Positions 10,745-59,438 of a stretch of 64,000 nt of DNA are shown here, one piece after another; within the stretch, counting starts at the first letter, position 1; each line of letters opens with the position of its first letter. The notes under the pieces are model-generated. The model made no database searches, was not told where the DNA came from, and saw only the letters and a program-made list of their open reading frames with translations. A program made the translations under genes and the position numbers. Origin of the DNA: Lactiplantibacillus songbeiensis. Its GTDB lineage: Bacteria; Bacillota; Bacilli; Lactobacillales; Lactobacillaceae. The stretch spans positions 1 to 64,000 of the forward strand of contig NZ_BJDL01000022.1 in the NCBI RefSeq assembly GCF_005405125.1, written 5' to 3'.

Positions 10745-10928
10745 CGATTGAGCCGAGAAGTTGGTTCCTAAAATGCTCAGCCGTGTCGTTGACCTTAGTG
10801 CGAGTGGTCTGCTCGGACTTAGACCAAGGTCAGTTTTGAAGACCTCATCTTTGGCTTCAAAATGGCCCATGGCGTGCCAGTATTTTATGATCCAACCGGC
10901 AGGCGGCAATTCAACTAACACCAAACAT
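10745..10928 (+). repeat. structured repeat, type A, inverted copy (putative RNA-sense strand +)
   Basis: Full type A module. Its outer stem begins GTTGGTTCC and its other arm ends in a CCAACCGG-type sequence. The inner stem TTTTGAAGACC with GGCTTCAAAA and the third stem CTTAGTGCGAGTGG with its complement are recognisable. It ends with AACTAACACCAAAC, matching the outer inverted end of composite units. Fills the gap between DUF4828 and the GH25-like gene. Open frames across it are by-products of the repeat. Confidence 0.75.
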
Positions 10929-10937
10929 AAATATGAC

Positions 10938-11711
10938 CTAATTCAACCCAGCCGCAATCACCTTCTGAAACGCATCATCATTGCCATTAAAGATCAGCCC
11001 GTTAAATTCCTGACTAGTCCCATTTTGCCGATAAACTGCGCGATTGGTATAGTGCATAAACAGCACGCGCTTACTTTGTTGACGCGTCTGAGTTGTATCT
11101 AGCCATAACGGCGTCTTTTTAATAACTGGCTTGACAATTTTCTTAGCAATCGTTGGCGTTGTCCAGATGACACAGTTGCGGTTATAATGATCGGTTAGAT
11201 TTAAGACCAACGTACGTAACTGCTTTTGCGCCCGTTTGACATTGACGGTGTCACTAGTGTAGTCGCCGTAATACTGGACTTGAATGCCAATCGGCAAGTT
11301 ACCGATATTGTTATTGACCGTTTTTTCAAAATAAGCGGTCTGGGCTTGTCCGGAACTCGAAAAGCTGAAAACATGGTAAACGCCGACACCTAGACTAGTC
11401 CCCAAGATCCGCGAATAACTGCTACTAAAGTTATCATCACTATAACTGGCACCCTGAGTCGCTTTTAAGTAGACAAATTTCAAGCCGTCTTTTTGTAGCG
11501 CTGCAAAGTCTAAGTAACCGTCATTTTGACTGACCGCTACCCCGCGAACATTAAAGCCTTGCACCACGGCATCACGGCGAAATTGTAGCCACTGCAGGCC
11601 ACCCCAGATTAACAACGCTACCAGCCCTAAGATCAAGACTAGTCCGAGGCGGTGTCGCCATTTAGCACCACGCGTGCGTGCATAGATTGGTCGTGTATGT
11701 TGTGTTGGCAT
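10938..11711 (-). CDS. GH25-like membrane-anchored protein, catalytic residues lost
   Basis: 257-residue protein with a basic N-terminus, one membrane helix (about 22-42) and an extracellular domain that follows the GH25 muramidase fold: GVAVSQNDGYLDF, LKFVYLKATQGASY, GVGVYHVFSFSSSG with the AYF helix, LPIGIQVQYYG, and a late VLFMHYTNRAVY. The residues that catalyse in GH25 are changed: the Asp of DVS is Ala59, the Glu of ATEG is Gln86 and the DxE pair is Gln144-Val-Gln146. The domain is therefore probably a non-hydrolytic peptidoglycan-binding or structural protein, or a very divergent enzyme. Single gene; upstream lies rpiR, transcribed the same way 27 bp before it, so a shared transcript is possible. 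Confidence 0.82.
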   Translation of the reverse strand: MPTQHTRPIYARTRGAKWRHRLGLVLILGLVALLIWGGLQWLQFRRDAVVQGFNVRGVAVSQNDGYLDFAALQKDGLKFVYLKATQGASYSDDNFSSSYSRILGTSLGVGVYHVFSFSSSGQAQTAYFEKTVNNNIGNLPIGIQVQYYGDYTSDTVNVKRAQKQLRTLVLNLTDHYNRNCVIWTTPTIAKKIVKPVIKKTPLWLDTTQTRQQSKRVLFMHYTNRAVYRQNGTSQEFNGLIFNGNDDAFQKVIAAGLN

Positions 11712-11738
11712 CTTTATTAATCACCATCCAAAAATCGC

Positions 11739-12617
11739 CTATAATTCCGTTCGCGTCTGACTAATCGCATCGCGTACTCGCCCTAAGCTGGCCGCCATTT
11801 GCCGGTTACCATGCACGGCCGTCATCAAGAACAAACTATCAATAATACTCATCTGCGCAATTAGAGACGTCAATCCTTCTGAGCGATAATTAATTTCTTC
11901 CGCAACGGAAATGAATGCCACGGTACTCCCTTTGGCTAACGGCGAATTGCCAAAACTCGTCAAGGCAATCACAGGCACCTGATGTTCAATTAACGTACTT
12001 AATATTTGTAAGGTTTGTTGATTCCGGCCAGTATGCGAAATCACGACCGCAACGTCTTTAGCGGTCATTTGGGCCGCCTGCATCAACTGCATATCATAGT
12101 CCGTATTATGCGCACATAAAATCCCCGTGCGAACGAACTTATGATAGCCATCCAAAGATGCCACCGCGGAACCACCGAGCCCGTAGAATCCAATGATGCG
12201 GGCGCCCAATAATAATTCAGTGGCGGCTTTTAAGTCGGCCTCTGTCATCACTTGACTAGTCTGATCTAAGGAACTGCGAATACTATTGAAAGTTGAATCG
12301 GCAATGCCTTTAAAGGTCGTTTGCTTCTCAACATCTTGAAACGCTTCCGCATTCGATTGTTCTAACGGTTCAGCCGCCGTTAATTCTCTTGAAAAATCAC
12401 GAAAACTATTAAAACTAATACGCTTTACAAAACGTGACACGGTCGCCGTTGAAACCCCCACGGCTGCCGCCAAATCAGAAATGGATTGCGCCGCTGTTTT
12501 AACTGGGTCTTTTATAATGTAATCAGCAATTTTGCGATCGGTGTGACTAAGGTTAGGATAGTACGACCGAATCAAGGTCAAAACGCGATTACGATGTGCA
12601 GATTTTTGTGTGGACAA
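11739..12617 (-). CDS. RpiR/MurR-family transcriptional regulator
   Basis: 292-residue regulator. The TTG at 12617 is preferred: GGAGGT lies seven bases ahead, whereas in-frame starts further up would have the site inside the gene. N-terminal HTH_6 domain: YPNLSHTDRKIADYI, SISDLAAAVGVSTATVSRFV. The C-terminal SIS sugar-phosphate domain contains RIIGFYGLGGSAVAS, then VAVVISHTGRNQQTLQIL. RpiR proteins sense phosphosugars. It is divergent from the gluconokinase gene, so control of that gene by 6-phosphogluconate or a related ligand is likely by analogy. Confidence 0.9.
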   Translation of the reverse strand: MSTQKSAHRNRVLTLIRSYYPNLSHTDRKIADYIIKDPVKTAAQSISDLAAAVGVSTATVSRFVKRISFNSFRDFSRELTAAEPLEQSNAEAFQDVEKQTTFKGIADSTFNSIRSSLDQTSQVMTEADLKAATELLLGARIIGFYGLGGSAVASLDGYHKFVRTGILCAHNTDYDMQLMQAAQMTAKDVAVVISHTGRNQQTLQILSTLIEHQVPVIALTSFGNSPLAKGSTVAFISVAEEINYRSEGLTSLIAQMSIIDSLFLMTAVHGNRQMAASLGRVRDAISQTRTEL

Positions 12618-12732
12618 AGCGGCCACCTCCATGACCAAATTCTACCACAATATTGAATTTTGCCCTAGACTGGTTCTATTGCGTGACCCCGCCTTTACTT
12701 GTAAACTGAAACATAGCTTTTACACTTGGTGC

Positions 12733-12990
12733 TAGTTGAGATTGCTGCCTGCCAGTTAGGTCCTAAATAACTGAACTGAAAATAATCAATTGTTAGTTTC
12801 TGTTAGTTAACGCCGGGCGGGCCAGCATTGGCTCAGTGGTGTCGTTTGACTTAGCCGGGAATTTTCCGGGTCAGCCAAAGCCCGGCTTATGAGACCGCCT
12901 TTCGACTCATAAACGCGGTCACCACGTTCCAGCCGATGCTGGCCCAACCAGAGTGGCAATTTAACGCCAACTAAAACATTAGCAATCAAC
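12733..12990 (+). repeat. structured repeat: relic of type A followed by complete type B
   Basis: The first part (12733-12795) keeps only the ends of type A: a TTGGTGCTAG end with GCTGCCTGCCAG, then the GAAAATAATCAATTG end, with the middle deleted. From 12806 a full type B follows: outer stem GGGCCAGCATTGGCT with AGCCGATGCTGGCCC (one T-G pair on the plus strand), stem GTGGTG with CACCAC, stem around CTTAGCCGGG, and the TTATGAGACC stem. Lies between the divergent rpiR and gntK genes, so it separates their promoters. Confidence 0.8.
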
Positions 12991-13028
12991 TTCAAATACA
13001 TAACACATCATAAAAAGGAGCGTTCATC

Positions 13029-14522
13029 ATGCAACCAATGTTAGGTGTCGATATCGGCACCACCAGTACTAAAGTCGTCTTATACAATGCTAACGGCCAA
13101 GTTGCCGCCAGCGCTAACCACGGCTACCCGCTTCATCAAGACCTACCGGGAATGGCCGAAGAAGATCCCGCTGCTATTTTCACAGCCGTTTTAACCGGCA
13201 TTCAAGCCGTCATCCCACAAGCTAAACAACCGATTGGCGGCATTAGTTTTTCGGCCGCCATGCATAGCTTGATTTTATTAGATGACGCCCATCAGCCGTT
13301 GACACGCATGTATACTTGGGCTGACAATCGCGCCAAGGCTGCCGCTGACCAGCTGCGAGCACTGCCTCAAGCACATCAACTCTATTTAAATACTGGCACC
13401 CCTATCCGTCCCATGACGCCGCTGGCTAAATTAGCTTGGCTCGCCCAGACCAATCCCGATCTCCTGGCGAAAACACGTTGGGTAGTCGATATTAAAAGTT
13501 ATGTGATCTACCAACTCACCGGTCAGTTAGTCATGGACTACTCGATTGCGAATGCTACTGGTCTTTTTAACTTGCACGCTTTCGACTGGGACCCATTAGC
13601 TTTAAAGCTAGCGCATATTCAAGCCGAACAGTTACCCAAACTAGTGGATACCACTGCTCAAGTCATTGGGTTAAACCCAGCTTTTGCAACCAAATGGCAG
13701 CTCAATCCCCAGACACCGCTGATTGTTGGTGCCAGTGATGGTTGTCTATCCAATCTGGGCGTCAACGCCATTGAACCAGGGGTGGCGGCACTAACCATTG
13801 GGACATCGGGCGCCATTCGAGTTGTGACCGACCAACCGCAACTTGATCCTAAAGGCCGCTTATTTTGTTACTACTTAGCGCCAAATCGCTGGGTCGTTGG
13901 TGGTCCAGTCAATAATGGCGGTAACGTTTTAAAATGGGTCCGCGATGCTTTCTTTGACGGTGCTGACTACGCGACCATCACCCAACTAGCGAGCCAAGTT
14001 CCCGCTGGCAGTCATGGGCTGTTAATGCATCCTTACCTAAACGGTGAACGGGCGCCACTATGGAATGCCAATGCTCGCGGTGCTTACTTTGGGTTGACTG
14101 CCCAACACACACGTGCTGATTTAAGTCGAGCCGCTTTAGAAGGCATCGGCTTTAATCTCGTCCAAGTTGCTGAGTTAGTTCAACAATTGACCGGTCCTTT
14201 TAAAAGTCTACAAGCCACGGGCGGCTTCGCTAATTCTGCGACTTGGCGCCAACTGTTAGCCGACATCTTCGCGACACCGTTAATTATCCCCGACAGCTTT
14301 GAAAGTTCCTGTTTAGGAGCGGCGGTTTTAGGCTGGGTCAGCTTAGACCAATTAACTGATTTAACAGCCGTGGCAAAGCTAGTCGGTCATAAACAAGTCG
14401 TCACGCCGAATGCTAAAGCGGTCGCGACTTACCAGCGACTGTATCCAATCTATCAAGACCTAACAACCGCCTATCAGCCCCTTTTTGAGCAACTAGCGGC
14501 TTTCACGACTAAAAAAGATTAG
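13029..14522 (+). CDS. gntK: gluconokinase (FGGY carbohydrate kinase)
   Basis: 497-residue FGGY kinase, probably gluconate to 6-phosphogluconate. The N-terminal phosphate loop VDIGTTSTKVVLYN, then AAMHSLILLD, TWADNRA, and TGTPIRPMTPLAKLAWL, which is the part typical of gluconokinases rather than xylulokinases. Second domain: IGTSGAIRVV, GGPVNNGGNVLKW, HPYLNGERAPLWN, TGGFANSATWRQLLADI. GGAG eight bases before the ATG. No permease or 6-phosphogluconate dehydrogenase adjoins it. The divergent RpiR gene is the probable regulator. Xylulose or another ketose as substrate cannot be fully excluded. Confidence 0.85.
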   Translation: MQPMLGVDIGTTSTKVVLYNANGQVAASANHGYPLHQDLPGMAEEDPAAIFTAVLTGIQAVIPQAKQPIGGISFSAAMHSLILLDDAHQPLTRMYTWADNRAKAAADQLRALPQAHQLYLNTGTPIRPMTPLAKLAWLAQTNPDLLAKTRWVVDIKSYVIYQLTGQLVMDYSIANATGLFNLHAFDWDPLALKLAHIQAEQLPKLVDTTAQVIGLNPAFATKWQLNPQTPLIVGASDGCLSNLGVNAIEPGVAALTIGTSGAIRVVTDQPQLDPKGRLFCYYLAPNRWVVGGPVNNGGNVLKWVRDAFFDGADYATITQLASQVPAGSHGLLMHPYLNGERAPLWNANARGAYFGLTAQHTRADLSRAALEGIGFNLVQVAELVQQLTGPFKSLQATGGFANSATWRQLLADIFATPLIIPDSFESSCLGAAVLGWVSLDQLTDLTAVAKLVGHKQVVTPNAKAVATYQRLYPIYQDLTTAYQPLFEQLAAFTTKKD

Positions 14523-14543
14523 CTTAACGGCTAATCTTTTTTA
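14511..14543. terminator. bidirectional terminator between gntK and the ApeA-like gene
   Basis: AAAAGATTAGC and GCTAATCTTTT with a six-base loop and T run; it overlaps the gntK stop codon and serves converging genes. Confidence 0.85.
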
Positions 14544-14547
14544 ATTT

Positions 14548-15870
14548 CTACCAAGTCTGAGTCATCGCCACTTCGAACGGCTGAGCCAACCGGACTTCTG
14601 CCGCTAAAATTGCCGGCGACACGCCTAGCTGATGTAATAGCCACAAGCGTAGCAAGGTCTTCATCACTAACTGAAAGCGATATTTCTGACCAATTGTGGT
14701 TAACCCTTTAACGGTAGTCACAGCCAATGAACTGTGAGCGGAAACGTTGCGCGCATCGCGAATCAAATCTAACAACTGATTAGTTGTCCGCACGACGGAT
14801 AACGCGCCCATCGCTTGCTGCACGTCCTGCCGTTCACAATTCTCCAACACGATTTTAACTTTGCGACGATAATAAACTTCTTTTTTACGACCCTTATTTT
14901 TATAAAAAGCATCAAAGATCACATTCAAACAATTACAAATACGTTGAATTTCGCCATTAATATCCTGAACCGGGCGAGTTGGCGTTAGCGTGTTCACCAC
15001 CGGCACCAGCTTGTCATAGGTCATCAGCCAATTGCGTAATGACAACGCCATCGCTTGATACCACCCATTATCCCGTGGAATAGCTAGCCGAGTGAATCGA
15101 AAATCACAGCTAGCCGCGTGATCCGGGGTCGTCTCAAAAATCATTAACTTGTTAGCGCCAGCTTGACCTAACAGTCGCGTGACCACGGTGGGCCGGCCAC
15201 TGACAACCGCTAACCAATCCGCAACCTGCTTCGCAATCAGAGACACTTCTCGTAAACTGCCGCCAGTACCAAGGTCCACGCCAATACTTTGATGGACCTG
15301 AAACCCGGAAACTTGTTGTTCGCCTAACAAAGCCCCCACTAATGGCCTGGTCGTCGTCAGTAATTGATACGTTTGCTGGCCAATCATAAACTGAAACCAA
15401 TCTTGGGGCTTACCAGTTGGCGTTGACGACCGCTTCACCGTCCCTACTGCCGGCTGGAGCCACGCGGTTAAGTTCAACAAATCAAGTTGTAATGCCGCCA
15501 GCCGGGTCGCACCCGTCACAAACCCACCGAGAACCATGCCGAGTACCCCATAATCCAGCACAGCTTGTTGACCATCACCTTGAAACGTCTGTTGTTGGTG
15601 TATCGGATAGATCCCGCTTAAGCTGACTTTAACCGGCAAATAAATGGGCGCACCGTTTGCCACCGGCAGGACCACCGTGCCGTGTCCATATAAAAAGGCT
15701 TGTTGATGCTGCGAAATTGTTAAGTCAGTCCCCGTCAACAATAAATGCATCGCCTGTGGTTGATAATGCAGGGTCCCGTTGTATGTCAACTCAGTCGGCG
15801 TAAAGCCCCACTGTCCGACAATCTCAAACGGTTGCTGACTATCAAGATCTTGGTAAGTCTGCCACGTCAT
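14548..15870 (-). CDS. ApeA-like HEPN-domain protein, candidate anti-phage RNase
   Basis: 440-residue cytoplasmic protein. The ATG at 15870 follows GGGGGCGAG by a good distance. The N-terminal half is beta-rich and begins FEIVGQWGFTPTELTYNGTL with HLLLTGTD, which resembles the N-terminal domain of ApeA. The C-terminal 150 residues are helical and hold LIRDARNVSAHSS, an RX4H motif (Arg374, His379) typical of HEPN ribonucleases. ApeA proteins are single-gene anti-phage systems thought to cleave RNA on infection. It stands alone between converging and co-directional unrelated genes, which fits a solitary defence gene. The family call rests on my reading of motifs; a HEPN protein with another sensor is the alternative. 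Confidence 0.68.
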   Translation of the reverse strand: MTWQTYQDLDSQQPFEIVGQWGFTPTELTYNGTLHYQPQAMHLLLTGTDLTISQHQQAFLYGHGTVVLPVANGAPIYLPVKVSLSGIYPIHQQQTFQGDGQQAVLDYGVLGMVLGGFVTGATRLAALQLDLLNLTAWLQPAVGTVKRSSTPTGKPQDWFQFMIGQQTYQLLTTTRPLVGALLGEQQVSGFQVHQSIGVDLGTGGSLREVSLIAKQVADWLAVVSGRPTVVTRLLGQAGANKLMIFETTPDHAASCDFRFTRLAIPRDNGWYQAMALSLRNWLMTYDKLVPVVNTLTPTRPVQDINGEIQRICNCLNVIFDAFYKNKGRKKEVYYRRKVKIVLENCERQDVQQAMGALSVVRTTNQLLDLIRDARNVSAHSSLAVTTVKGLTTIGQKYRFQLVMKTLLRLWLLHQLGVSPAILAAEVRLAQPFEVAMTQTW

Positions 15871-15889
15871 TTGACTCGCCCCCAAAGCA

Positions 15890-15922
15890 AAAAATAAACG
15901 AGCACCTCCTAAAAGGTTGCTC
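15890..15922 (-). terminator. terminator of the matrixin protease gene
   Basis: CGAGCAACC and GGAGGTGCTCG form an imperfect stem followed by TTTATTTTTT on the minus strand. Confidence 0.7.
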
Positions 15923-15933
15923 GCTAGTGACCG

Positions 15934-19046: not shown

Positions 19047-19130
19047 GATTAGTTGCTTTTAAGCGCGATGTTTCAAGGCAAATTTACTGTGACCTGAAGT
19101 TTTGAGTCGTGTTTTTGTTTTGCTGAAACG

Positions 19131-19239
19131 TGTTCGGTCCAACTGCCACTTCCGCTTGCTACGCCAGTCAATCATCCCGGAAAGTTCACCGGCAGCATTG
19201 CCTAGCTAGGCAATGCTCAGTGGCAACCCGTTGGCCCTC
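19131..19239 (-). repeat. type C structured repeat directly after the tetR stop
   Basis: On the minus strand it begins GAGGGCCAACGGGTTGCCACT next to the tetR stop and ends GGACCGAACACGTTTCAGC. TGCCACT pairs with AGTGGCA where the copy at 28289-28410 has TGCGCC with GGGCGCA. The apical part differs: here GCATTGCCTAG is followed by a perfect complement. A shared 3' untranslated structure. Confidence 0.65.
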
Positions 19240-19803
19240 TCACTCTTTAGGCATATGCGTCTGATCAATCGCCAACTGCATCGTCTGTGTAAACCGCTTG
19301 TCCAAGGCTTCTTGTGACATCGTAAAGAAGCCCCCGATTTCTTGAATAATGAACCCAAATAAAGCTGACCGGTACAAGGTATTTTCAACCCGAGCACTGT
19401 CATCTAATTGTAATGGTCGAAACATGTCTTGGTACATCTTGACCAAGGCTTTCCGGGTCCGTGGAATTTTTAATGAATCGTTCATGTCTAACATGACTGG
19501 CGTTAAGCCCTTATGCCGTTCACAAGCGACCCGGAATTCTTGGGCGAATACCATTAAGGCGGCATCGCCTTCGACCCCGTCCATCTTTTCATTTAATTGG
19601 TCGGTCACGCCTTGAATAAATTGAATACCGACTTGGTCGAGTAAATCACTCAAACTATCAACATAGTTATAAATCGACTGTGGTCGTACATCTAAGACGA
19701 GCGCCAAGTCACGGATTGTTAAACCATTAATACCCTTGGTTTCAATTAGTTGGTTAGCGGTTGCTAACACTTTCGCCTGGGTTAACGTTCTTCTTTTAAC
19801 CAT
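19240..19803 (-). CDS. TetR-family transcriptional regulator
   Basis: 187-residue regulator with an N-terminal TetR HTH (TLTQAKVLATANQLIETKG, then LTIRDLALVLDVRPQSIYNYV) and a helical ligand domain. The C-terminal domain belongs to the WHG-like type (FGFIIQEIGGFFTMSQEALD). Divergent from an MFS drug carrier, whose repressor it probably is. The 165-bp gap has AT-rich promoter sequences for both. Confidence 0.9.
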   Translation of the reverse strand: MVKRRTLTQAKVLATANQLIETKGINGLTIRDLALVLDVRPQSIYNYVDSLSDLLDQVGIQFIQGVTDQLNEKMDGVEGDAALMVFAQEFRVACERHKGLTPVMLDMNDSLKIPRTRKALVKMYQDMFRPLQLDDSARVENTLYRSALFGFIIQEIGGFFTMSQEALDKRFTQTMQLAIDQTHMPKE

Positions 19804-25177: not shown

Positions 25178-25578
25178 AACGTTTGGTACTAGTAAAAATT
25201 GCCGCCTGCCGGTTGGTTCCTAAAACGCTGGAACGCCATGGGCCATTTTGAAGCCAAAGCCCGGTCTTCAAAACTGACCTTGGCCTAAGTCCGAGCAAAC
25301 CACTCGCACTAAGGCCAACGACACGGCTGAGCGTTTTAGGAACCAACCTCTCGGCTAAATGACCGAATTGAAAATAATCAATCGCTAATTTTTTAATAGC
25401 CATTAATTAACGCCGGGCGGGCCAGAATTGGCTCAGTGGTGTCGTTGATCTTAGTTGTCTGATTTTGGGCAACTTAGATCAAGCCCGGCTTGCGAGACCG
25501 CACTTTGGCTCGCAAACGTGGCCACCACGTTCCAGCCGATTCTGGACCAACCAGAGTGGCACTTTTTATACTCATGAA
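25178..25578. repeat. composite structured repeat, type A then type B
   Basis: Type A (25195-25362): outer stem GGTTCCTAAAACGCT/AGCGTTTTAGGAACC. A spacer holds GAAAATAATCAATCG. Type B (25408-25560): outer stem GGCCAGAATTGGCT with AGCCGATTCTGGACC. The unit begins TTTGGTACTAG and AAATTGCCGCC and ends GAGTGGCA. A and B have the same stem order but on opposite strands, so the whole is a large imperfect inverted repeat of about 400 bp. No coding frame. It occupies the gap between the MFS and rlmD genes. Confidence 0.85.
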
Positions 25579-28197: not shown

Positions 28198-28288
28198 GTT
28201 ACTTTCCTCCGCGTCCTGTCTTTTTTGTTCTGTGTCTTAACTTACCGTTGCTTGGTCAGGCGGTGGTTGGCCGCCTAGTGGCCGATTG

Positions 28289-28410
28289 GCTGAAACGTGT
28301 TCGGTCCAACTGCGCCCTGTGCTTGCTACGCTATCTCAACCACTCGGAAAATCACCGAGTAATTGAGATAGCTAGGCAATGCTCAGGCGCAACCCGTTGG
28401 CCCTCACACT
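28289..28410 (-). repeat. type C structured repeat directly after the gatB stop
   Basis: Minus strand: it starts GTGAGGGCCAACGGGTTGCG next to the gatB stop. TGCGCC pairs with GGGCGCA, and a 17-bp apical stem CTATCTCAATTACTCGG / CCGAGTGGTTGAGATAG (two G-T pairs on this strand) is seen. It ends GGACCGAACACGTTTCAGC. Same start and end as the copy at 19131-19239. Confidence 0.7.
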
Positions 28411-29835
28411 CTATCTAGCTTGCAACGAAGCCATCAACAACTTATTAACAACCTTCGGATTAGCCTTACCATGGGTCTGCTTCATAATTTGACCCACTAA
28501 GAAACCGACTGCCCGGTCTTTACCATTCTTAAAGTCATCAATTGATTGTTGGTTATTTTCCAAGACATTATCAATAATTGGTTGTAATTGTGCTGGATCT
28601 GACAATTGGACTAAGCCCTTGTCATTGACCCACTTAACTGGATCTGAACCAGCCATGATGGCCTTGAAGACTTTCTTGGCAATCTTGCTAGAAATGGTTT
28701 CATCGGAAATCATCTTGATCATGCCAGCTAAGTTTTCTGGCGTTAACTTGGTGTCTTGTAAATCAACTTTGTTTTCGTTCAAGAAGGCATTAACGTCCCC
28801 TTGTAAGTAGTTTGAAGTCAACTTAGGATCAGCACCTTGAGCCACCGTTGCGTCAAAGAAGTCTGACATTTCCTTAGTCTGTGTTAAGACGCCCGCATCG
28901 TAAGGGGTCAGCCCAAAGTCGTTCACATAACGATTGCGACGTGACCCTGGCATTTCAGGAATCGTCGCTTTAACGTCATTGATCCAATCATCGCTGATTT
29001 CAACGACGGGGATATCTGGTTCTGGGAAGTAACGGTAATCATCGCTACCTTCCTTGACCCGCATCAAGATCGTTTTACCGGTAGTTTCATCGAAACGCCG
29101 GGTTTCTTGTTGCACTTGGCCACCTGACATTAAGACCCGTTGTTGCCGTTGTTCTTCATATTCCAAGGACTTCTTAACGTAATTAAAGGAGTTCAAGTTT
29201 TTCATTTCAGTCTTAACGCCATAGGTATCGGAACCGGCCGGCCGAATCGAAATGTTGACATCGACCCGCATTGAGCCTTCTTCCATCTTAACATCAGAAA
29301 CACCGGTAAATTGAATCCGTTGACGTAAGGCTTCACAATAAGCATACGCTTCGGCTGGTGAACTGATATCAGGTTTTGACACGATTTCGATCAAAGGCGT
29401 CCCTTGACGGTTCAAATCGACATATGAATGAGTGCTGGCATGGGTGTTTTTCCCAGCATCTTCTTCAATATGCATTTCTTCAATCCCAATTTTCTTCTTT
29501 TGACCATCCACTTCAATTTCAAGCCAGCCATCATGGGCTATCGGCTTTTCGTGTTGGGTGATTTGGTATGCTTTCGGGTTATCTGGGTAGAAATAGTTCT
29601 TCCGATCAAAATAAGTTTCTTGTTCGATTTCGGCATGTAAGGCCGTTGCCGCTTTAATCCCAGCTTCAACCACGCCTTTATTGGCCGTTGGTAAGACCCC
29701 GGGATAGCCCCAGTCGATCACGTTCGTGTTGGCGTTAGGTTCTGCACCGAATTGCACGGGTGATGGACTAAAAATTTTGGAATTGGTTTTTAATTCAACA
29801 TGGACTTCAAGTCCGATCGTCGTCACAAAATTCAT
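28411..29835 (-). CDS. gatB: Asp-tRNA(Asn)/Glu-tRNA(Gln) amidotransferase subunit B
   Basis: 474-residue GatB. It activates Glu-tRNA(Gln) or Asp-tRNA(Asn) by phosphorylation for amidation by GatA. Conserved N-terminus [20 protein letters not shown], the zinc/tRNA-binding region with [13 protein letters not shown], and [11 protein letters not shown]; the C-terminal GatB/Yqey helices end [20 protein letters not shown]. Starts directly after the gatA stop. The order gatC-gatA-gatB on one strand is standard. Confidence 0.97.
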
Positions 29836-31764: not shown

Positions 31765-31945
31765 GATAACAGTCAAACCAGCTAGCGTAGGGCGGGCTGG
31801 ATGATACTCAGTGGTGAGATTTCACTAGGTTGAGTGATTTTCTCGACCTAGTGAAAGCCCAGCTTGGAAGACCGCACTTTGGCTTCCAAATGTGGCCACC
31901 ACGTTCCAGCATCAATCCAGACCAACCGAAGTGGCAAATAACCAT
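31765..31945 (+). repeat. structured repeat, type B alone
   Basis: Divergent type B: outer arms GGGCTGGATGAT and ATCAATCCAG are changed together relative to other copies, so the stem is kept. Stem 3 TTTCACTAGGT with ACCTAGTGAAA and the TTGGAAGACC stem are also changed together. The conserved pieces CTCAGTGGTGAG and GGCCACCACGTTCCAGC remain. Lies between camS and gatC; the rest of the 31614-31977 gap holds the gatC promoter. Confidence 0.8.
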
Positions 31946-37488: not shown

Positions 37489-37654
37489 CCTTTCTAAAAA
37501 TCAGTCAACAAATATTATACCAAATTTCAGCCTGATATGCTGGCCTTTCAACCGGCTTTTTCGAATGTTTGTTCTATTAATTTGAAGTACTTATGACCAT
37601 CAGTTTGCTTAAAATTATCACACTGATTGGCTAATCGATGACACATTCCACTAG

Positions 37655-38066
37655 CTAACACCTGGTGCTGGCTAAAATTGCCGCCTGCCGGTTGGGTTCT
37701 AAAACGCTGGAACGCCATGGGCCATTTTGAAGCCAAAGTGCGGTCTTCAAAACTGGCCTTGGCCTAAGTCCGAGCAGGCCACTCGCACTAAGGCCAACGA
37801 CACGGCTGAGCATTTTAGAACCCAACCTCTCGGCTAAATCTATGGTCGACAATAAGATAGTCATTAATTCACGTTAATTAACGTTGGGCGGGCCAGCATC
37901 GGCTCAGTGGTGCCGTTTATCTTGGTCGGTGATTTTCCGACTTAGATAAAGCCCGGCTTTCGAGACCGTACTGTGGCTTGAAAACGCGGCCACCATGTTC
38001 CAGCCGATTCTGGCCCAACCAGAGTGGCAATTTAAGCCAACTAGTACCAAGCGTAACCAGTGATTA
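37655..38066. repeat. composite structured repeat, type A then type B
   Basis: Type A (37684-37835) has outer stem GGGTTCTAAAACGCT with AGCATTTTAGAACCC, where GGGTTC/GAACCC replaces GGTTCC/GGAACC of the copy at 25178. Type B (37886-38030) follows after TTCACGTTAATTAACG. Ends: CTGGTGCTGG..AAATTGCC and GGCAATTTAAGCC..CTAGTACCAAG, a clear inverted repeat. About 410 bp, non-coding, filling the gap between the PurK-like gene and pcrA. Confidence 0.88.
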
Positions 38067-38089
38067 ACGGCAAGCCCATTACTTAACGA

Positions 38090-38128
38090 CAAAAAGAGTT
38101 CAGGTCTACACCCAAACTCTTTCGTTTT
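38090..38128 (-). terminator. terminator of the PurK-like gene
   Basis: Minus strand AAAGAGTTTGGGT paired with ACCTGAACTCTTT, then TTT. Confidence 0.6.
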
Positions 38129-39461: not shown

Positions 39462-39645
39462 CTATTGTCCACTTCGGTTGGCCTGGATTGACGCTGGAAC
39501 GTGGTGGCCACGTTTATGAGCCATAGTGCGGTCTCATAAGCCGGGCTTTGACTAACCCGGCAAAAAACCACCGGCTAAGTCAAACGACACCACTGAGCGT
39601 CATCCAGTCCGCCCTTCGCTAATTTCATCAACATTGCTAATTGCT
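39462..39645 (-). repeat. structured repeat, type B, inverted copy
   Basis: The only type B here in the opposite orientation. It reads GACGCTGGAACGTGGTGGCC, the TTATGAGCCATAG..GGTCTCATAA stem, stem 3 TGACTAACCCGG/CCGGCTAAGTCA, then CGACACCACTGAGCGTC. Outer arms TGGATTGACGCT/GAGCGTCATCCA keep pairing with a new sequence. Within the gap 39312-39735, which otherwise shows only AT-rich promoter-like sequence. Confidence 0.8.
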
Positions 39646-44904: not shown

Positions 44905-45097
44905 TAGTTAAAATTGCCGCCTGCCGGTTAATTAACGCCGGGCTGGCTATAATTGGCTCAGTGGTGTCGTTTATCTAAGTAGGTGATTTTCCCCCCAGCT
45001 TTCGAGACCACACTATGGCTGGAAAACGTGGTCACCATGTTCCAGCCGATTCTGGCCCAACCAGAGTGGCAAGTTAATCCAACCAGCACTAAGCATA
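44905..45097 (+). repeat. type A end fused to type B repeat
   Basis: AAAATTGCCGCCTGCCGG, the left end of type A, runs directly into TTAATTAACGCCGGGC of type B, so all of type A between has been lost. Type B has a shortened stem 3 (GATTTTCCCCCC). The outer stem TATAATTGG / CCGATTCTGG is partly mismatched. Shows how the composites decay. Confidence 0.75.
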
Positions 45098-51637: not shown

Positions 51638-52048
51638 AGAATACGCTGGGTGCTAGTTAAAATTGCCGCTTGCCGGTTGGTTCCTAAAATGCTGGAACGC
51701 CATGGGCCATTTTGAAGCCAAAGCTCGGTCTTCAAAACTGGCCTTGGCCTAAGTATGAGCAGACCACTCACACTAAGGCCAACGACACGGCTGAGCATTT
51801 TAGGAACCAACCTCTCGGCTAAATTTATGGTCAACAATAGATAGTCATTAATTCACGTTAATTAACATTGGGCGGACCAGAATTGGCTCAGTGGTGTCGT
51901 TTATCTTGGTCGGTGATTTTCCGACTTAGATAAAGCCAGGCTTTCAAGACAACCCTTTGGCTCGAAAACGTGGCCACCTCGTTCCAGCCAACGCTGGGAC
52001 AATCAGAGTGGCAACCCACATCCAACTAACACCAAACGTAGTACCTAC
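51638..52048. repeat. composite structured repeat, type A then type B
   Basis: Type A (51670-51815): outer stem GGTTCCTAAAATGCT / AGCATTTTAGGAACC, fully paired. Type B (51868-52012): outer stem GGACCAGAATTGGCT is opposed by AGCCAACGCTGGGAC, less well matched. Left end GGGTGCTAGTTAAAATTGCC and right end GGCAACCCACATCCAACTAACACC form the inverted ends. About 405 bp, in the gap 51599-52344 together with a second type B. Confidence 0.85.
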
Positions 52049-52164: not shown

Positions 52165-52338
52165 TAACTACCTGTTAATTAACGTCGGGCGGACCAGAAT
52201 TGGCTCAGTGGTGTCGTTTCACTTAGTCGGTGGTTTTCCGGCTTAGTGAAAGCCCGGCTTTCGAGACCGCACTATGGCTCGAAAACGCGGCCACCACGTT
52301 CCAGCCGATTCTGGTCCAACCAGAGCGGCAATTAACCA
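52165..52338 (+). repeat. structured repeat, additional type B
   Basis: A second type B 120 bp after the composite. Outer stem GGACCAGAATTGGCT / AGCCGATTCTGGTCC, where GGACC/GGTCC replaces GGGCC/GGCCC: a compensatory change. GTGGTG/CACCAC is intact, and stem 3 begins TTTCACTTAGTCGG with CCGGCTTAGTGAAA. The 52049-52164 stretch between shows nothing recognisable. Confidence 0.82.
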
Positions 52339-54597: not shown

Positions 54598-54773
54598 TGC
54601 CTCCTAATTGAATTCTTATTAATATAACGATATTAATTTTATTGATTTTCACATAAATAGTCAAGGATTTCTTTAATATTTTTAACAACAAGGAGCCTAA
54701 TCACTGTCAAAGCACGACTTTCATAGCTTAGTTATTTTACACAAAGAAAGCGATACTAACCGTTTTCAAAATT

Positions 54774-54813
54774 AAAAAAAGACGCTGATTCTAAGAATCG
54801 GCGTCTTTTTTAA
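54774..54813. terminator. bidirectional terminator after mleP
   Basis: AAAAGACGCTGATTC / GAATCGGCGTCTTTT between mleP and the permease promoter. Confidence 0.85.
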
Positions 54814-54837
54814 TACTATTTTAATTTTAATCGTGTC

Positions 54838-55809
54838 CTAGATAAATTGAATCAACGACATTAAGATTGGCACCACGACGATGAATAAGACCGTACTGGT
54901 CGTCACCACGTTTGTCGCGTATTCAACATCCCCATGCGCTTCGTTAGCCAAGATTGGCAAGACAGCCAACATTGGGGTTGCGGATTGCACAATCAACGTT
55001 TGTGAGGCCATCGTTGGGAAGCTGGCACCAAAGTTGCCGGCAACCATCAAGACCGCAATCATGATCGCAGGTGACAAGATGAACCGACCTACTAATGCCA
55101 CAATCGTATCGCGATCAAAACGGATACTCTTCAAACCAGCATCGGCTAAGACAATCCCAATATAGATTAAGGATAATGGGGTGACCAAGTTACCGACGTA
55201 AGTTAACGTAGAGTTCACAAAAGAAATTTTCAAGATTGGAATATTCAATAGTAGGAAGATCAAAGCGACCAAAAACCCAACTAATGGCATTGGAATCACT
55301 TTCTTCCAGTCAATCTTGTTATGCGTCTGCTCCTTTGACTTAGTCGGATCATCATTTGAAATCAAGAAGACCCCAAATGCCCAAGTCGAAACGGTATTCA
55401 CAATATAATAAACCAAGAAGTACGTCATACTCTTGTCACCGAACAAGGCAATGTTCAAAGGCAACCCAATAAAGATTGTATTGGCGTTGACCATCGCATT
55501 GATAAAGATCCCCTTACGCCCGGGTTTAATATGCATCAACTTAACTAACGCAAAGGCAATCAAATATCCGATGATGACGGCCAGAAAAGCATACGCCAGG
55601 TAACCGGAAAATGAGACCAATTGGCCACGCGTTAAGCGACTTAATACTGAAACGAAGATTGACGCTGGCAAGGCAATGTTCTTAATAAATTTCGAAATCG
55701 TCCCACCAAATTTATCGTCAAACCAGCCCGTCCGTCGTAATACATATCCTAAAATCATGATCAAAACGACCACGAGGACACTTTGAATTGAATTCCATAA
55801 AACAGCCAT
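54838..55809 (-). CDS. mleP: malate permease (AEC family), MleP-like
   Basis: 323-residue carrier of the auxin-efflux-carrier family with ten helices: VVLIMILGYVLRRTGWFDDK, KNIALPASIFVSVLSRLTRG, NANTIFIGLPLNIALFGD and the helix 10 part FIVVVPILMSLIQFI. In oenococci and lactobacilli this family imports L-malate for the malolactic enzyme. Here it follows mleS, with a type A repeat and a hairpin in between, so mleS and mleP may be read together in part. Confidence 0.87.
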   Translation of the reverse strand: MAVLWNSIQSVLVVVLIMILGYVLRRTGWFDDKFGGTISKFIKNIALPASIFVSVLSRLTRGQLVSFSGYLAYAFLAVIIGYLIAFALVKLMHIKPGRKGIFINAMVNANTIFIGLPLNIALFGDKSMTYFLVYYIVNTVSTWAFGVFLISNDDPTKSKEQTHNKIDWKKVIPMPLVGFLVALIFLLLNIPILKISFVNSTLTYVGNLVTPLSLIYIGIVLADAGLKSIRFDRDTIVALVGRFILSPAIMIAVLMVAGNFGASFPTMASQTLIVQSATPMLAVLPILANEAHGDVEYATNVVTTSTVLFIVVVPILMSLIQFI

Positions 55810-55861
55810 AAGTTTTTAGTCCCTACTTCCTACAATTTTTTCTCTCTTTAATGCTTGAAGT

Positions 55862-56040
55862 TAGTTGTTAGTGCCGCCTGCCGGTTGGGGCCTAAAACGC
55901 TGGAACGCCATGGACCATTTTGAAGCCAAAGGGCGGTCTTCAAAACTGGCCTTGACCTAAGACCGGGAAAATCACCCGCTCTAAGGCCAACGACATGGCT
56001 GAGCATTTTAGGCCCCAACCTCTCGGCTAAACTAGTCGCT
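55862..56040 (-). repeat. structured repeat, type A alone
   Basis: Outer stem GGGGCCTAAAACGCT / AGCATTTTAGGCCCC, where GGGGCC/GGCCCC replaces GGTTCC/GGAACC of other copies. GCCATGG / CATGGC is fully paired. Stem 3 is GACCTAAGACCGGG..CCCGCTCTAAGGCC. Putative RNA-sense strand is minus, the same as mleS and mleP, and it lies between them. Confidence 0.82.
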
Positions 56041-56192
56041 GTTAATAAATATTGACTAGTTTATAGCTAATACTTAAACAGTCTAACCTAATCCATCATT
56101 CTCTATAACGTGTTGCACGCTCTCTCTAAAAACGCGACCACTATATTGATTTGTTGCAATTTTATTGCTTACAATTTAGCTAGTAAGCTAAT

Positions 56193-56250
56193 GACCAAAA
56201 TATGCGATGAACCCCCATGTTTAGGGTCATTAACATAAGCATATTTTGGC
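56193..56250 (-). terminator. long hairpin after mleS
   Basis: CCAAAATATGC and GCATATTTTGG enclose a second stem ATGA-CCC / GGG-TCAT. There is no T run, so this may act as an RNA stability or processing structure instead of an intrinsic terminator. The rest of 56041-56281 shows nothing clear. Confidence 0.55.
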
Positions 56251-56281
56251 GATCAACTTAGGCGGTAACTATCTTACCAAC

Positions 56282-57913
56282 TTATTTATACTCAGGAACC
56301 CACTTCATGTCAGCAACAGCTTGCTTAGCACTAGTAATTGGTTCTTTGTTTAACTTTTGGTCGATAACACTTTGGGCCACGACTTCGGCTAACGTTTGTG
56401 AAAATTCAGTAATCTTTGAAACTGGTGGTAAAACGGCCGCACCAGGCTTGCTCGTATCAACGATACCGCCTAAAGCATGGCAAGCAGCAGATAGCGTTTC
56501 TGCATTCAAGACTTTGGCTGTTGCCGCAATCAACCCGAAGCCTAAACCAGGGTACATCAAGGCATTGTTCCCTTGACCGATTTGGTAAGTGACACCCTTG
56601 TATTCAACATCATCCGCAGGAATCCCAGTTGCAACCAAGGCCCGGCCATCCGTCCACTTGATTAAGTCTTCAGCTTTGGCTTCAGCCAATTTCGTTGGAT
56701 TGGATAATGGGAAGATGATTGGCCGATCAGTATGGGCCGCCATTTCCTTAATGATGCTTTCGGTAAAGGTCCCTGGTTGAGTAGATGTCCCAATCATGAC
56801 CGTTGGGTGAACTGCTTTAACAACAGCTTCTAAGTTCGTCAATTCATCAGCATTGCTGAATTCACTGCGTTGACGTGTGAAGGCTTTTTGGGCTGGCGTT
56901 AAGTCTTCAGTGTCATCGAACAACAAGCCTTGCTTATCAACAGCATAGAAGTGTTGCTTGGCTTCAGCTTCCGTCAAACCAGCTTGCATGAGTTCATCCA
57001 TGATTTGGTTCGCAATCCCCATGCCGGCAGTCCCAGCGCCAAAGGATAGGATTTTTTGATCCTTGATACTTTCCTTAGAAATGTTCAAAGCCCCTAAAAT
57101 CCCAGCTAAAACAACCATCCCAGTACCCTGAATATCATCATTGAAGGTCGCAATCTTGTCTTTGTATTGATCTAAGATCACTTGCGCGTTTGAACGGCCG
57201 AAGTCTTCCCAATGTAATAATGATTCTGGGAATAACTTTTGTTCTGCCGCCACAAATTTATCGATAGTTTCATAATAACGGTCGCCATAAATCCGCTTGT
57301 GACGATTGCCTAGATACAACGGATCATCAAGTAATTTTTGATTGTTGGTCCCAGCATCGATGCTAACTGGTAAGACTTGTGACGGGTCAATCCCGGCAGC
57401 GGCCGTGTAGACCATTAGCTTACCAACAGCGATATCAACACCATTGACACCCCAGTCACCCATTCCTAAGATCCCTTCAGCGTCAGTCACAACGACTAAC
57501 CGAATGTCACGGCCAGTAGCTGCGTTCTTCAAAGTCGCTTCAATATCTTCAGGTGCATCAACCGAAACAAAGGCCGCATTTTGTGGATCTAAGAACAATT
57601 CGTTATATTGTTCGATTGAATCAGCGACGACTGGATCGTACACGATTGGCATAAATTCAACCACGTGTTGATCCATCAAGTGGTAGAACAACGTCCGGTT
57701 TTCATTGAACAAGTTCATTAAAAAGATCCGTTTTTCTAAACGTGTCGCCTTACTTTGAAATTGGGCATACGCTTGGGTTGTTTGTTCTTCAATCGTTTGA
57801 ACTTGGCTAGGTAATGTCCCGATTAAACCTAACGCTTGGCGTTCAGCCTTAGTAAAGGCCGTCCCTTTGTTTAAGAACGGGTTATTTAAAATTTGGTCTG
57901 CAGTTTTCGTCAT
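56282..57913 (-). CDS. mleS: malolactic enzyme
   Basis: 543-residue NAD- and Mn-dependent enzyme decarboxylating L-malate to L-lactate. It looks like malic enzyme: [20 protein letters not shown], the signature [40 protein letters not shown] and [16 protein letters not shown] as the NAD site. The length of about 540 fits malolactic rather than malic enzymes. GGAGG precedes ATG. Divergent from mleR and near mleP: a normal mle cluster. Confidence 0.95.
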
Positions 57914-58068
57914 TACTAATTCCTCCGTTTGGGTTAGTTTAACTATTGAATTAACTAATTTGGTAAGCTGCGATTATTAGATTAACGAATCCGTTCATCG
58001 CAATCAACAATCTGCGCTCATCAATTTACATTTAACACCTTAAACCCGCTCAATTATTATAGTCAAGC

Positions 58069-58098
58069 TTGCCACCTACTATAAAAATATTTTATAAT
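58069..58098 (+). promoter_or_regulatory. mleR promoter
   Basis: TTGCCA, 18 bases, TATAAT; transcription from near 58105 supports the ATG at 58132 as start. The mleS-mleR gap also holds a near-palindrome AACGAATCCGTT that could be part of a LysR site. Confidence 0.65.
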
Positions 58099-58131
58099 GT
58101 CAGTATAAACGTTGATCTAACAGGAGAAATT

Positions 58132-59010
58132 ATGAATACAAAGGACTTAGCCTATTTCAAAGAATTAATTAATCAAAAAAACTTTTCAAAAGTAGCCGAT
58201 TTTTTCGGCGTGAGTCAGCCAACTATCACCACGGCTATCAAACGATTGGAAACCGAATTCGGATCACAACTCATTATTCGTGACCGCGTTCATCATGAGT
58301 TAACAATCACTCAAAGCGGCCAGCAGCTGGCGGAACACGCCACTAGTATTTTGCGAGAATTGGATACCGCCCACCACGAAATCCAAAATCTCGTTCAGAA
58401 TCAGATTGCATTAGGCTTGCCACCTATTATTGAAAACTACTATTTTCCAAAAATTGCAGCCCAACTTAAACAACAGCGACTCTTACGCCACATCTTAACG
58501 GTCGAAGGCGGCTCGGTCGACTTGCGCAAAGGGTTGCTAGATGGGCAGATGGACATGGCTTTATTAGGTTCCATCGAACCCCTCTCCTATCAGAACTTAA
58601 TCGCCGATGAATTCGACCGCCATCCGTTCTACATTTACGTCGGTAAAACCCATCCGCTCGCTGATCGTAAACGGATCTTCTTCAGCGAACTACGACATGA
58701 AGACTTTGTCCTGTTCGAAAATAGTTTCGTGCATAACCAAGCCTTCAATAAACTCACCCGGCGGAACCACTTTCGCCCCGATGTCGTTTTTCGGTCCAAC
58801 GACACGCATATTATTATGAAGTTAGTGGCACAAAACGTCGGTATCACTTATTTAACCGATATCGTCGATCAACAAGATGATGTCGTGCGACTGGAGTTGA
58901 TGGATGAGGAACGGCCAGAATTCATCACCAGTATTGTCTATCGCACCACGCACATCCTAACGCCCGCTCAGCAGCAATTATTGGATATCATGCATCGCAT
59001 TTTGGCTTAA
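58132..59010 (+). CDS. mleR: LysR-family malolactic regulator MleR
   Basis: 292-residue LysR regulator. The HTH starts MNTKDLAYFKELINQKNFSK and reads VSQPTITTAIKRLETEF; the effector domain is LPPIIENYYFPKIAAQL and onward. The ATG at 58132 is supported by AGGAGA and the promoter. Divergent from mleS, which it should activate in response to malate. It shares its N-terminal layout with the second LysR gene at 61625. Confidence 0.92.
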   Translation: MNTKDLAYFKELINQKNFSKVADFFGVSQPTITTAIKRLETEFGSQLIIRDRVHHELTITQSGQQLAEHATSILRELDTAHHEIQNLVQNQIALGLPPIIENYYFPKIAAQLKQQRLLRHILTVEGGSVDLRKGLLDGQMDMALLGSIEPLSYQNLIADEFDRHPFYIYVGKTHPLADRKRIFFSELRHEDFVLFENSFVHNQAFNKLTRRNHFRPDVVFRSNDTHIIMKLVAQNVGITYLTDIVDQQDDVVRLELMDEERPEFITSIVYRTTHILTPAQQQLLDIMHRILA

Positions 59011-59024
59011 CACGATCCGTCTCC

Positions 59025-59100
59025 GTTGACCAAACGATTCGCTGTGGGGCAACCCTGAAGCCTAAAAACCAGTCTTCAGGGCGAATCATTTGGTCACTCC
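59025..59100 (+). repeat. reduced structured repeat (type D) after mleR
   Basis: Outer stem TGACCAAACGATTCGC / GCGAATCATTTGGTCA and an inner stem CCCTGAAGCC / GGTCTTCAGGG-like. The inner loop resembles the GAAGCC..GGTCTTC stem of type A. No stem 3. Non-coding. Confidence 0.5.
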
Positions 59101-59160
59101 GACTATGTCTTATGAGACATAATCACTGTTAACTATCGTCAGTTTTCGGAAAATTTCATT

Positions 59161-59215
59161 AATACAAATAAGCACTCAAAATCGAATCAATCGATTTTGA
59201 GTGCTTATTTGTATT
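59161..59215. terminator. terminator after mleR, 25-bp perfect stem
   Basis: Two 25-base arms (59161-59185, 59191-59215) are perfect complements around a five-base loop. The T-rich second arm fits a terminator for mleR. Confidence 0.8.
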
Positions 59216-59267
59216 TCTACTCTCTGATCAAAGTTTTGACTTGTCTTAAAACCCATCTTATAATCAC

Positions 59268-59438
59268 GGATTAATTAACGCCGGGCGGGCCAGCATTGGC
59301 TCAGTGGTGTCGTTTGACTTAGCCGGCGGTCTTCCGGGTTAGTCAAAGCCCGGCTTATGAGCCCGCCCTTCGGCTCATAAACGCGGCCACCACGTTCCAG
59401 CCAATGCTGGCCCAACCAGAGTGGCAAGTTTAGTCCAG
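59268..59438 (+). repeat. structured repeat, type B
   Basis: Best-paired type B: GGGCCAGCATTGGCT with AGCCAATGCTGGCCC without mismatch, GTGGTG/CACCAC, stem 3 GACTTAGCCGG / CCGGGTTAGTC, and stem TTATGAGCCC / GGCTCATAA with an altered loop. Lies after larE. Confidence 0.85.

What the first reader, a model, noticed from the sequence alone, without database searches (positions are those of the whole stretch)
10745..59438. Family of structured intergenic repeats with compensatory changes and one-strand G-U pairs
About 14 near-complete modules (5 type A, 9 type B) lie only in intergenic gaps. All share outer stem, short GTGGTG/CACCAC-type stem, and two hairpins. Outer stems vary together: GGTTCC/GGAACC, GGGTTC/GAACCC, GGGGCC/GGCCCC in type A; GGGCC/GGCCC and GGACC/GGTCC in type B. 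Remaining mismatches, such as CGCT against AGCAT in A and AATTGG against CCGATT in B, are C-A on one strand and G-U on the other, and the G-U strand is the same relative to module structure in both types. That pattern fits selection on RNA, not DNA hairpins. I do not recall this family from any described lactobacillar RNA, but I cannot search.
Basis: partly seen in the sequence, partly recalled or inferred. Interest (0 to 1): 0.85.

Follow-up and report, generated by a model that had tools for sequence, protein, structure and literature searches.

The report
Jumping DNA with conserved folded cassettes
The repeats are halves of small jumping-DNA elements that probably depend on another element's enzyme to move, and each half carries a strongly conserved cloverleaf-like fold belonging to a widespread family of folded repeats in lactobacilli that is absent from the RNA-family database searched.

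Summary
In detail: 14 near-complete modules and one fragment. The reading as an RNA family is half the story.

Types A and B are one module in opposite orientation; two "B" copies are a third subfamily, C. In this genome A(-) and B(+) form a ~390-bp element ending in CGCTTGGTGCTAGTT. Of 86 elements with both ends, 29 have exact target duplications of 7 nt or more (0.09 expected). L. dongliensis has a clean insertion where the window is empty. A 956-bp IS982-family insertion sequence in L. nangangensis has the same ends. So these are IS982-type MITEs.

The module looks older. A covariance model finds it in 116 of 397 Lactobacillaceae genomes; 14 of the 19 genus genomes that have it lack the exact IS982-type end. 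Close neighbours are mostly head-to-head, and in other genomes it sits inside IS110-derived elements. In one diverse alignment 42 of 44 base pairs change on both sides; G-U exceeds A-C 96 to 23. Rfam has no match.

Selection on one strand's fold is well supported. RNA and single-stranded DNA are not separated: no promoter signal or gene-orientation bias was found, and DNA folding favours the same strand. Copies in this genome drift almost neutrally. Function is inferred.

The parts
10758..10899 (+). type A module (right-hand IS982-type end remnant at 10913-10927, 3 mismatches)
   Evidence: CM R1 115.9 bits; HMM A; end
12723..12737 (+). left IS982-type end, 1 mismatch, with a 12730-12773 remnant of a deleted A half
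12814..12951 (+). type B module
   Evidence: CM R1 130.1 bits
17152..17215 (+). fragment of a B module
   Evidence: CM R1 24.6 bits; HMM B part
25180..25565 (+). composite element: left end 25180-25194 (3 mismatches), A half 25209-25349 (-), B half 25414-25554 (+); no right end recognised
31789..31929 (+). type C module, no IS982-type end recognised
   Evidence: CM R1 126.7 bits; HMM C
37659..38053 (+). complete composite element, 395 bp: left end 37659-37673 (4 mismatches), A half 37688-37828 (-), spacer, B half 37885-38022 (+), right end 38039-38053 (1 mismatch)
39474..39615 (-). type C module
   Evidence: CM R1 140.9 bits; HMM C
44939..45064 (+). B module of an element whose A half is deleted; right end 45081-45095 (3 mismatches)
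   Evidence: CM R1 67.4 bits; sequence
51644..52038 (+). complete composite element, 395 bp: left end 51644-51658 (1 mismatch), A half 51673-51813 (-), B half 51869-52006 (+), right end 52024-52038 (2 mismatches)
52186..52323 (+). type B module without recognisable ends
   Evidence: CM R1 143.9 bits
55852..56021 (-). type A half (55881-56021) with a decayed left end 55852-55866 (4 mismatches); no B half
   Evidence: CM R1 147.4 bits
59282..59419 (+). type B module without a convincing end
   Evidence: CM R1 140.2 bits
7259..7266 (.). empty site: L. dongliensis has a composite element here, flanked by a 9-bp duplication

Best explanation
The repeats are non-autonomous transposons (MITEs), intact or decayed. 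A complete one is about 390 bp: an IS982-type end CGCTTGGTGCTAGTT, module A reading outward to the left, a short spacer, module B reading outward to the right, and the inverted end. Shown: ends, target duplications of mostly 8-10 bp, insertion polymorphism, and an autonomous-looking IS982-family element with the same ends in a sister species. Inferred: that its transposase moves them in trans. Each half carries one copy of a ~165-nt folding module (an outer stem, a short inner stem, two hairpins). It is widespread in Lactobacillaceae, often in head-to-head pairs, and in some other genomes sits inside IS110-derived elements, so it is probably older than these MITEs. Shown: covariation and strand asymmetry that imply long-term selection for the fold on one strand. 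Inferred: the module works as a folded single strand, RNA somewhat more likely than single-stranded DNA. Because both modules of a pair point outward, any transcript or displaced strand leaving the element in either direction carries one correctly folded module at the element's edge. My most likely mechanism is a bidirectional structure at the element's edge, bound by a host or transposition factor, that helps such elements persist between genes.
For: A and B are one family in opposite orientation. Neighbours closer than 600 bp are head-to-head in 82 of 86 pairs in held stretches of this genome and in 15 of 15 pairs in held stretches of other genomes. 86 elements have both ends; 29 have exact flanking direct repeats of 7 nt or more (edges allowed to shift by up to 2 nt) against 0.09 expected (strict 9-nt test 12 of 86 with 7 or more matches, control 0.6%). 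Clean insertion in L. dongliensis with a 9-bp duplication at a site empty in the window. At 11 of 11 repeat-bearing gaps compared, G003 has no full module, and G004 differs at several. IS982 element: 956 bp, 19-bp perfect terminal repeats, transposase 219.1 bits against a cut-off of 130. The exact end occurs in 5 of 21 genus genomes: G000, G002, G004, G010, G012. Fold. Strand asymmetry. Breadth: 19 of 21 genus genomes, 116 of 397 family genomes. IS110 context.
Against: In the window's genome the only relative of the partner IS found is decayed (77% identity, nine stops), so present activity is unproven there. 57 of 86 elements show no duplication of 7 nt or more, and neither complete element in the window does. 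Among sister-species orthologues modules change about as fast as flanks (0.0617 against 0.0674, p 0.20), although stems change less than loops (0.052 against 0.085, p 3e-5). The G-U excess is weak in young copies (orthologues 50:35, p 0.13; own A 70:52, p 0.12; own B 145:85, p 9e-5). No promoter signal and no gene-orientation bias argue against a dedicated RNA gene or mRNA leader. Head-to-head pairing is not universal: 27 of the 57 modules have no partner within 600 bp, 4 of 86 own pairs are same-strand, and the G098 hits listed include same-strand neighbours. In two G365 pairs the modules are alike but the spacers look unrelated, which a simple element-copying model does not predict.
Confidence: 0.75

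Rival explanations
1. Folded single-stranded DNA, not RNA: the module is an end structure recognised as a DNA hairpin, as REP/BIME pairs are thought to be by their dedicated transposases (recalled), and the IS982 and IS110 ends are later additions.
For: Head-to-head pairing; with DNA parameters the module strand is the more stable one in 75 of 75 sequences; no promoter signal and no transcriptional orientation bias; similar modules with unrelated-looking spacers in G365 suggest that modules move or convert on their own.
Against: No clean insertion of a lone module with its own target signature was found; no HUH-type transposase was searched for; the G-U to A-C ratio (37:4 in one set; 96:23 in the union) is stronger than I would expect from G-T wobble in DNA.
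Confidence: 0.25
2. Plain MITE: the fold is a by-product of palindromic ends, and the paired changes come from hairpin template switching or gene conversion, not selection.
For: Near-neutral divergence in orthologues; clustered double changes at the same few hairpin positions in three of the 31 orthologue pairs; module near-identity next to diverged flanks in G008 and G015 fits gene conversion.
Against: Unpaired motifs are conserved across diverged copies while stems are rewritten; 42 of 44 pairs covary in 70 sequences; correction of arms would not give a 96:23 excess of G-U over A-C on one strand.
Confidence: 0.12
3. The module is the guide RNA (bridge RNA or seekRNA) of an IS110-family element, copied in excess.
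For: In G008, G015 and G128, and by eye in G287, it lies after an IS110 transposase C-terminal remnant and before CTTGACTAATCGTAGGAA or a near variant, on the transposase strand.
Against: 24 of the 30 loci fetched around that C-terminus were given to the model (the six left out are from G008 and G015); only L326 of G128 gave a module, and the loci with full-length transposase frames gave none. The same module sits in IS982-type elements. The variable positions are paired inside the module and no long unpaired guide segments are seen. The window's genome has no match to the IS110 C-terminus.
Confidence: 0.07
4. A stand-alone or UTR-borne regulatory RNA family, dispersed by chance by transposons.
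For: Strong covariation and conserved unpaired motifs; no Rfam match; few modules between divergent genes in other genomes, 4 of 55 placed.
Against: No upstream sigma-70 signal: mean best mismatches 4.09 against 4.11 in shuffles, 104 modules. Codirectional and antidirectional placement between tandem genes are alike: B 27/25, A 12/13, C 6/3; in other genomes 12/18.
Confidence: 0.1

Closest known systems
MITECca01 of Cardinium (PMC9769881, passages read)
   Same: High-copy non-autonomous element whose inverted repeats match an IS982-family element, moved in trans by inference
   Different: About 240 bp, described as derived from its parent IS; the terms hairpin and secondary structure do not occur in its main text. 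Here the interior shows no match to the IS and carries two folded modules head-to-head
bcr1-type repeats of the Bacillus cereus group (PMC3446304 and PMC2267715, passages read)
   Same: Interspersed, ~150-bp intergenic, MITE-like repeats with a predicted conserved fold
   Different: Specific to the B. cereus group per a cited title; the present module is in 15 of 40 Lactobacillaceae genera sampled, often paired head-to-head, and found with two unrelated IS families. bcr1 was not aligned to it here
REP/BIME repeats (PMC3733652, start of abstract in a search listing; the rest recalled)
   Same: Palindromic units, often paired, in high copy; single-strand folding
   Different: REP units are 20-40 bp; the module is ~165 nt with a three-way fold. 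A REP-type transposase was not searched for
IS110-family bridge RNA / seekRNA (recalled; no paper read)
   Same: Structured sequence next to IS110 transposase remnants in a few genomes
   Different: Not found at the full IS110 copies examined, present in IS982-type elements, no visible guide loops

Membership tests
MITE mobilised by an IS982-family element | short and without a transposase gene | tested here: met
   49 of 86 elements with both ends fall in the 380-419 bp bins, the rest are shorter; window modules lie between the larger ORFs
MITE mobilised by an IS982-family element | terminal inverted repeats shared with an autonomous IS | tested here: met
   CGCTTGGTGCTAGTT shared with the 956-bp element L189:7265-8220
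MITE mobilised by an IS982-family element | target-site duplication | tested here: met
   29 of 86 elements with exact repeats of 7 nt or more, 22 of them 8-10 nt; 0.09 expected
MITE mobilised by an IS982-family element | empty site in a relative | tested here: met
   window 7259-7266 empty, occupied in L. dongliensis
MITE mobilised by an IS982-family element | transposase of the partner belongs to IS982 | tested here: met
   NF033520 219.1 bits, cut-off 130
MITE mobilised by an IS982-family element | functional transposase in the same genome | tested here: not met
   only a decayed copy with nine stops in the held draft assembly; 50 contigs, so a collapsed copy could be missed
MITE mobilised by an IS982-family element | movement in trans by that transposase | not testable with these tools
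   needs an experiment
Rfam structured RNA family | match to a covariance model in Rfam 15 | tested here: not met
   only a tRNA in the window at gathering scores; nothing up to E 10 in 37600-38100
conserved structured RNA | covariation above phylogeny-blind shuffles and slid controls | tested here: met
   no phylogeny-aware R-scape test was run
conserved structured RNA | transcribed | not testable with these tools
   no RNA-seq; promoter scan negative
IS110 bridge RNA | encoded in the end of full IS110 elements | tested here: not met
   no module in the loci with full-length IS110 frames examined
IS110 bridge RNA | guide loops complementary to donor and target | tested here: inconclusive
   variable positions are internally paired; complementarity to targets was not computed
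REP/BIME | 20-40 nt palindromic unit | tested here: not met
   module is ~165 nt with a three-way fold
REP/BIME | dedicated REP-type transposase | not tested
   no search was made

The most novel reading that the evidence does not exclude
The module is a new, widespread class of structured nucleic-acid cassette in Lactobacillaceae, about 15 to at least 150 per genome in the genus where present. It acts as a folded single strand, often lives in head-to-head pairs, and has been taken up independently by non-autonomous derivatives of at least two unrelated IS families because the fold itself helps those elements move or survive.
Probability: 0.45. Interest if true: 0.88.

Novelty: new variant of a known kind. 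Interest (0 to 1): 0.72.

Why it matters
Small non-autonomous transposons are usually treated as inert sequence between two ends. Here their cargo shows strong fold conservation on one strand, in many genera, associated with two unrelated transposase families. If true, something recognises the fold: either a host factor or a shared step of transposition. It also accounts for many intergenic repeats in lactobacilli of food and health interest, and gives a ready covariance model and clear mutants to test.

Tried and rejected
Plasmid and phage collections gave no match to a 401-bp composite query. Rfam gave nothing. A sigma-70 promoter was sought and not found. Codirection with neighbouring genes was tested and not found in the window's genome. 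An autonomous transposon with modules as its own ends was looked for by listing A-B pairs with wide spacers; the wide pairs listed look like separate elements, but the stretches between them were not examined one by one. IS110 bridge RNA was considered and set aside. The RNAalifold consensus of the 82 B copies was poor on a plain alignment. The hit in Aliiruegeria was taken as chance and not followed. In the orthologue test 40 pairs were found, 2 were dropped for low coverage and 7 because module divergence above 15% suggested a paralogue, leaving 31. In the G-U count, share at least four modules, so the union was recounted: 67 kept of 127 rows.

Ten paper searches were made: eight on repeats, MITEs or RNA motifs in lactobacilli, one on IS982 MITEs and one on bcr1. 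None listed a description of this family. The library holds open-licence papers only, so this is weak evidence that it is undescribed.
Full report
WHAT IS THERE. The window is G000:C22:1-64000 of a 3.03-Mb draft genome. Repeat search shows repeat groups of about 190 nt. HMM searches find the same places with A on one strand and B on the other, and aligning A reversed with B shows one family with shared motifs. In the window there are 5 A, 7 B and 2 C near-complete modules and fragments. In 989,049 bases of this genome, 51 stretches mostly chosen around hits and therefore biased, there are 58 A, 136 B and 20 C near-full modules plus 58, 19 and 6 partial ones.

THE ELEMENT. The commonest arrangement is A(-) B(+) (75 groups), followed by B alone (59), C alone (18), A alone (14) and A split by an internal deletion with B (10). 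Among neighbours closer than 600 bp 82 of 86 are head-to-head and 4 same-strand. Outside the two modules both ends read CGCTTGGTGCTAGTT pointing inward. 86 elements have both ends with at most 4 mismatches each and 5 in all, in this genome and held stretches of G002, G004 and G010; orthologous copies are counted apart, two places are counted twice with alternative left ends, and the shortest may be chance pairs. 49 of them fall in the 380-419 bp bins. Exact direct repeats of 7 nt or more, edges allowed to shift by up to 2 nt, flank 29 of 86, against 0.09 expected from pairing flanks of different elements; 22 of the 29 are 8-10 nt. A strict 9-nt comparison gives 12 of 86 with at least 7 matches, control 0.6%. 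The two complete elements in the window show none.

MOBILITY. Aligning the window with the syntenic region of L. dongliensis shows an insertion in the latter at window 7259-7266. It is a 349-bp element with A partly deleted and B complete, flanked by TATATAATA on both sides; the window has the empty site with one base different. At 11 repeat-bearing gaps G003, 67-88% identical in flanks, has no full module (one weak partial hit), though it has one at another place of the region (L170). G004 lacks or differs at several of the 11.

PARTNER. Exact CGCTTGGTGCTAGTT occurs in 5 of 21 genus genomes: G000, G002, G004, G010, G012. Four G010 sites and the G012 site have no A or B module. Two of the G010 sites bound a 956-bp insertion sequence with a 19-bp perfect terminal repeat and one 289-aa transposase. 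The transposase scores 219.1 bits for IS982 (cut-off 130) and matches Pfam DDE domains. A second G010 copy is 94% identical, a third is 90% with five stops. Four L. dongliensis contig ends stop 75-76 bp inside the same element at 97-100% identity, suggesting collapsed copies. The window's genome shows one decayed copy, 77% identical with nine stops. A blastn of this IS against the held loci gave no match in A-B elements. This resembles the IS982 MITE described in Cardinium (PMC9769881, passages read).

THE MODULE LOOKS OLDER. Relatives carry diverged modules without these ends. In an alignment of 23 modules motifs such as GCTCAG, CTTAG, GACCG..TTTGGC and GTTCCAG stay while stems are rewritten; 26 of 45 predicted pairs keep pairing through changes on both sides. 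A covariance model from 22 of them (142 positions, 44 pairs) finds modules in 19 of 21 genus genomes, 15 to 150 matches each where 150 is the number scored; 14 of these 19 lack the exact IS982-type end, which was not searched beyond the genus. It finds them in 116 of 397 family genomes, 15 of 40 genera, with 8 candidates per genome scored, and in 25 of 395 genomes of the order, 24 of them in the same family and one outside at E 4e-5. G018 and G019, of the same genus, have none. In stretches from other genomes, chosen around hits, 15 of 15 neighbouring pairs are head-to-head with spacers of 60-300 bp; these hold 30 of the 57 modules. Same-strand neighbours do occur: the G098 hits. Rfam has nothing.

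FOLD AND STRAND. Counts on the diverse alignment A4 give 97.4% paired cells, 42 of 44 pairs with double changes and a covariation score of 0.717 against 0.182 (sd 0.007) in shuffles and at most 0.115 in slid controls; A4 was fitted to the model, so it leans towards it. A2, a plain sequence alignment, gives 26 of 44 and 0.557 against 0.168. On the module strand G-U exceeds A-C at pairs that are mostly Watson-Crick: 37 to 4 in 28 sequences and 72 to 24 in 52; in the non-redundant union of both sets 96 to 23 in 67 sequences, with 41 sequences having more G-U, 8 more A-C and 18 ties. A covariance-model search favours G-U slightly, and sequences are not independent. Minimum free energy favours the module strand in 66 of 75 non-redundant sequences with RNA parameters (8 opposite, 1 tie) and in 75 of 75 with DNA parameters; in this genome's copies 31 of 34 A and 52 of 82 B with RNA parameters. 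So one strand is favoured, but the kind of nucleic acid is open.

AFTER INSERTION. For orthologous modules in the window's species and L. dongliensis (31 pairs kept of 40), module divergence is 0.0617 and flank divergence 0.0674 (p 0.20); stems change less than loops, 194/3707 against 116/1362 (p 3e-5). At Watson-Crick consensus pairs G-U and A-C changes are 50 and 35 (p 0.13), and there are 14 double Watson-Crick changes, several clustered in single copies. Selection on individual young copies is therefore weak or absent; the fold seems to be kept in the lineages that amplify.

CONTEXT. In this genome placement relative to genes is random and 5 of 198 modules lie inside a long predicted ORF (simple ORF caller). 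In other genomes, of 57 modules one lies inside an ORF; of 55 placed, 21 are between convergent genes, 4 between divergent genes, 12 codirectional and 18 antidirectional between tandem genes. Around 104 modules there is no sigma-70 enrichment.

A SECOND CARRIER. In G008 and G015 near-identical modules sit between a transposase C-terminal remnant and the sequence CTTGACTAATCGTAGGAA or a near variant, and the flanks are more diverged than the module; not every copy has the remnant. The remnant fits the last residues of the IS110 profile only weakly (E 0.1), but full-length relatives found with it score 197 and 182 bits for IS110 (cut-off 140). Right ends of such relatives carry the same sequence and no module. 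The same arrangement is in G128 and, read by eye, in spacers of G287 pairs. IS110 remnants without a module also occur. So non-autonomous derivatives of two unrelated IS families carry the module.

MECHANISM. Movement of the window's elements by IS982 transposase in trans is inferred from ends, duplications and polymorphism. The role of the fold is inferred: both modules of a pair point outward, so each exit from the element carries one folded module, as an RNA structure on read-through transcripts or as a folded transferred DNA strand. Which one, and which factor binds it, is untested.

LITERATURE. Ten searches listed no description of this family. Passages on IS982 MITEs, stem-loop families and bcr1 repeats were read in three papers. 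Bridge RNA and REP mechanisms are recalled, not read.

Noticed in passing
window 19119-19246 and 28286-28412: A second, unrelated repeat: a hairpin GCTGAAACGTGTTCGG followed by a conserved stretch (77% and 93% identical blocks; 2 exact hits in the window). GAAACGTGTTCGG occurs in 19 of 373 fetched loci.
   Followed up: partly
L208:15180-16017 (G000:C32): Decayed IS982-family copy with end CGCTTAGTGCTAGTT, the only close relative of the partner IS seen in the window's genome.
   Followed up: yes
L319 and L320 (G365): Two head-to-head pairs with near-identical right modules and similar left modules but unrelated-looking spacers; unexplained by simple copying of the whole element.
   Followed up: partly
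L304-L309, L315-L318 (G008, G015): Modules nearly identical among copies while homologous IS110-derived flanks have diverged: gene conversion or selection.
   Followed up: partly
G018 and G019: Two genomes of the same genus with no module at the threshold used; useful as natural negative controls.
   Followed up: no
G098:C4:201757-202218 and C5:138462-138775: Runs of same-strand neighbouring modules, unlike the usual head-to-head pairs (listed).
   Followed up: no
L250 (G003:C7:76001-83000): Two neighbouring diverged IS982-family transposase genes in the contig syntenic with the window, one with a stop.
   Followed up: no
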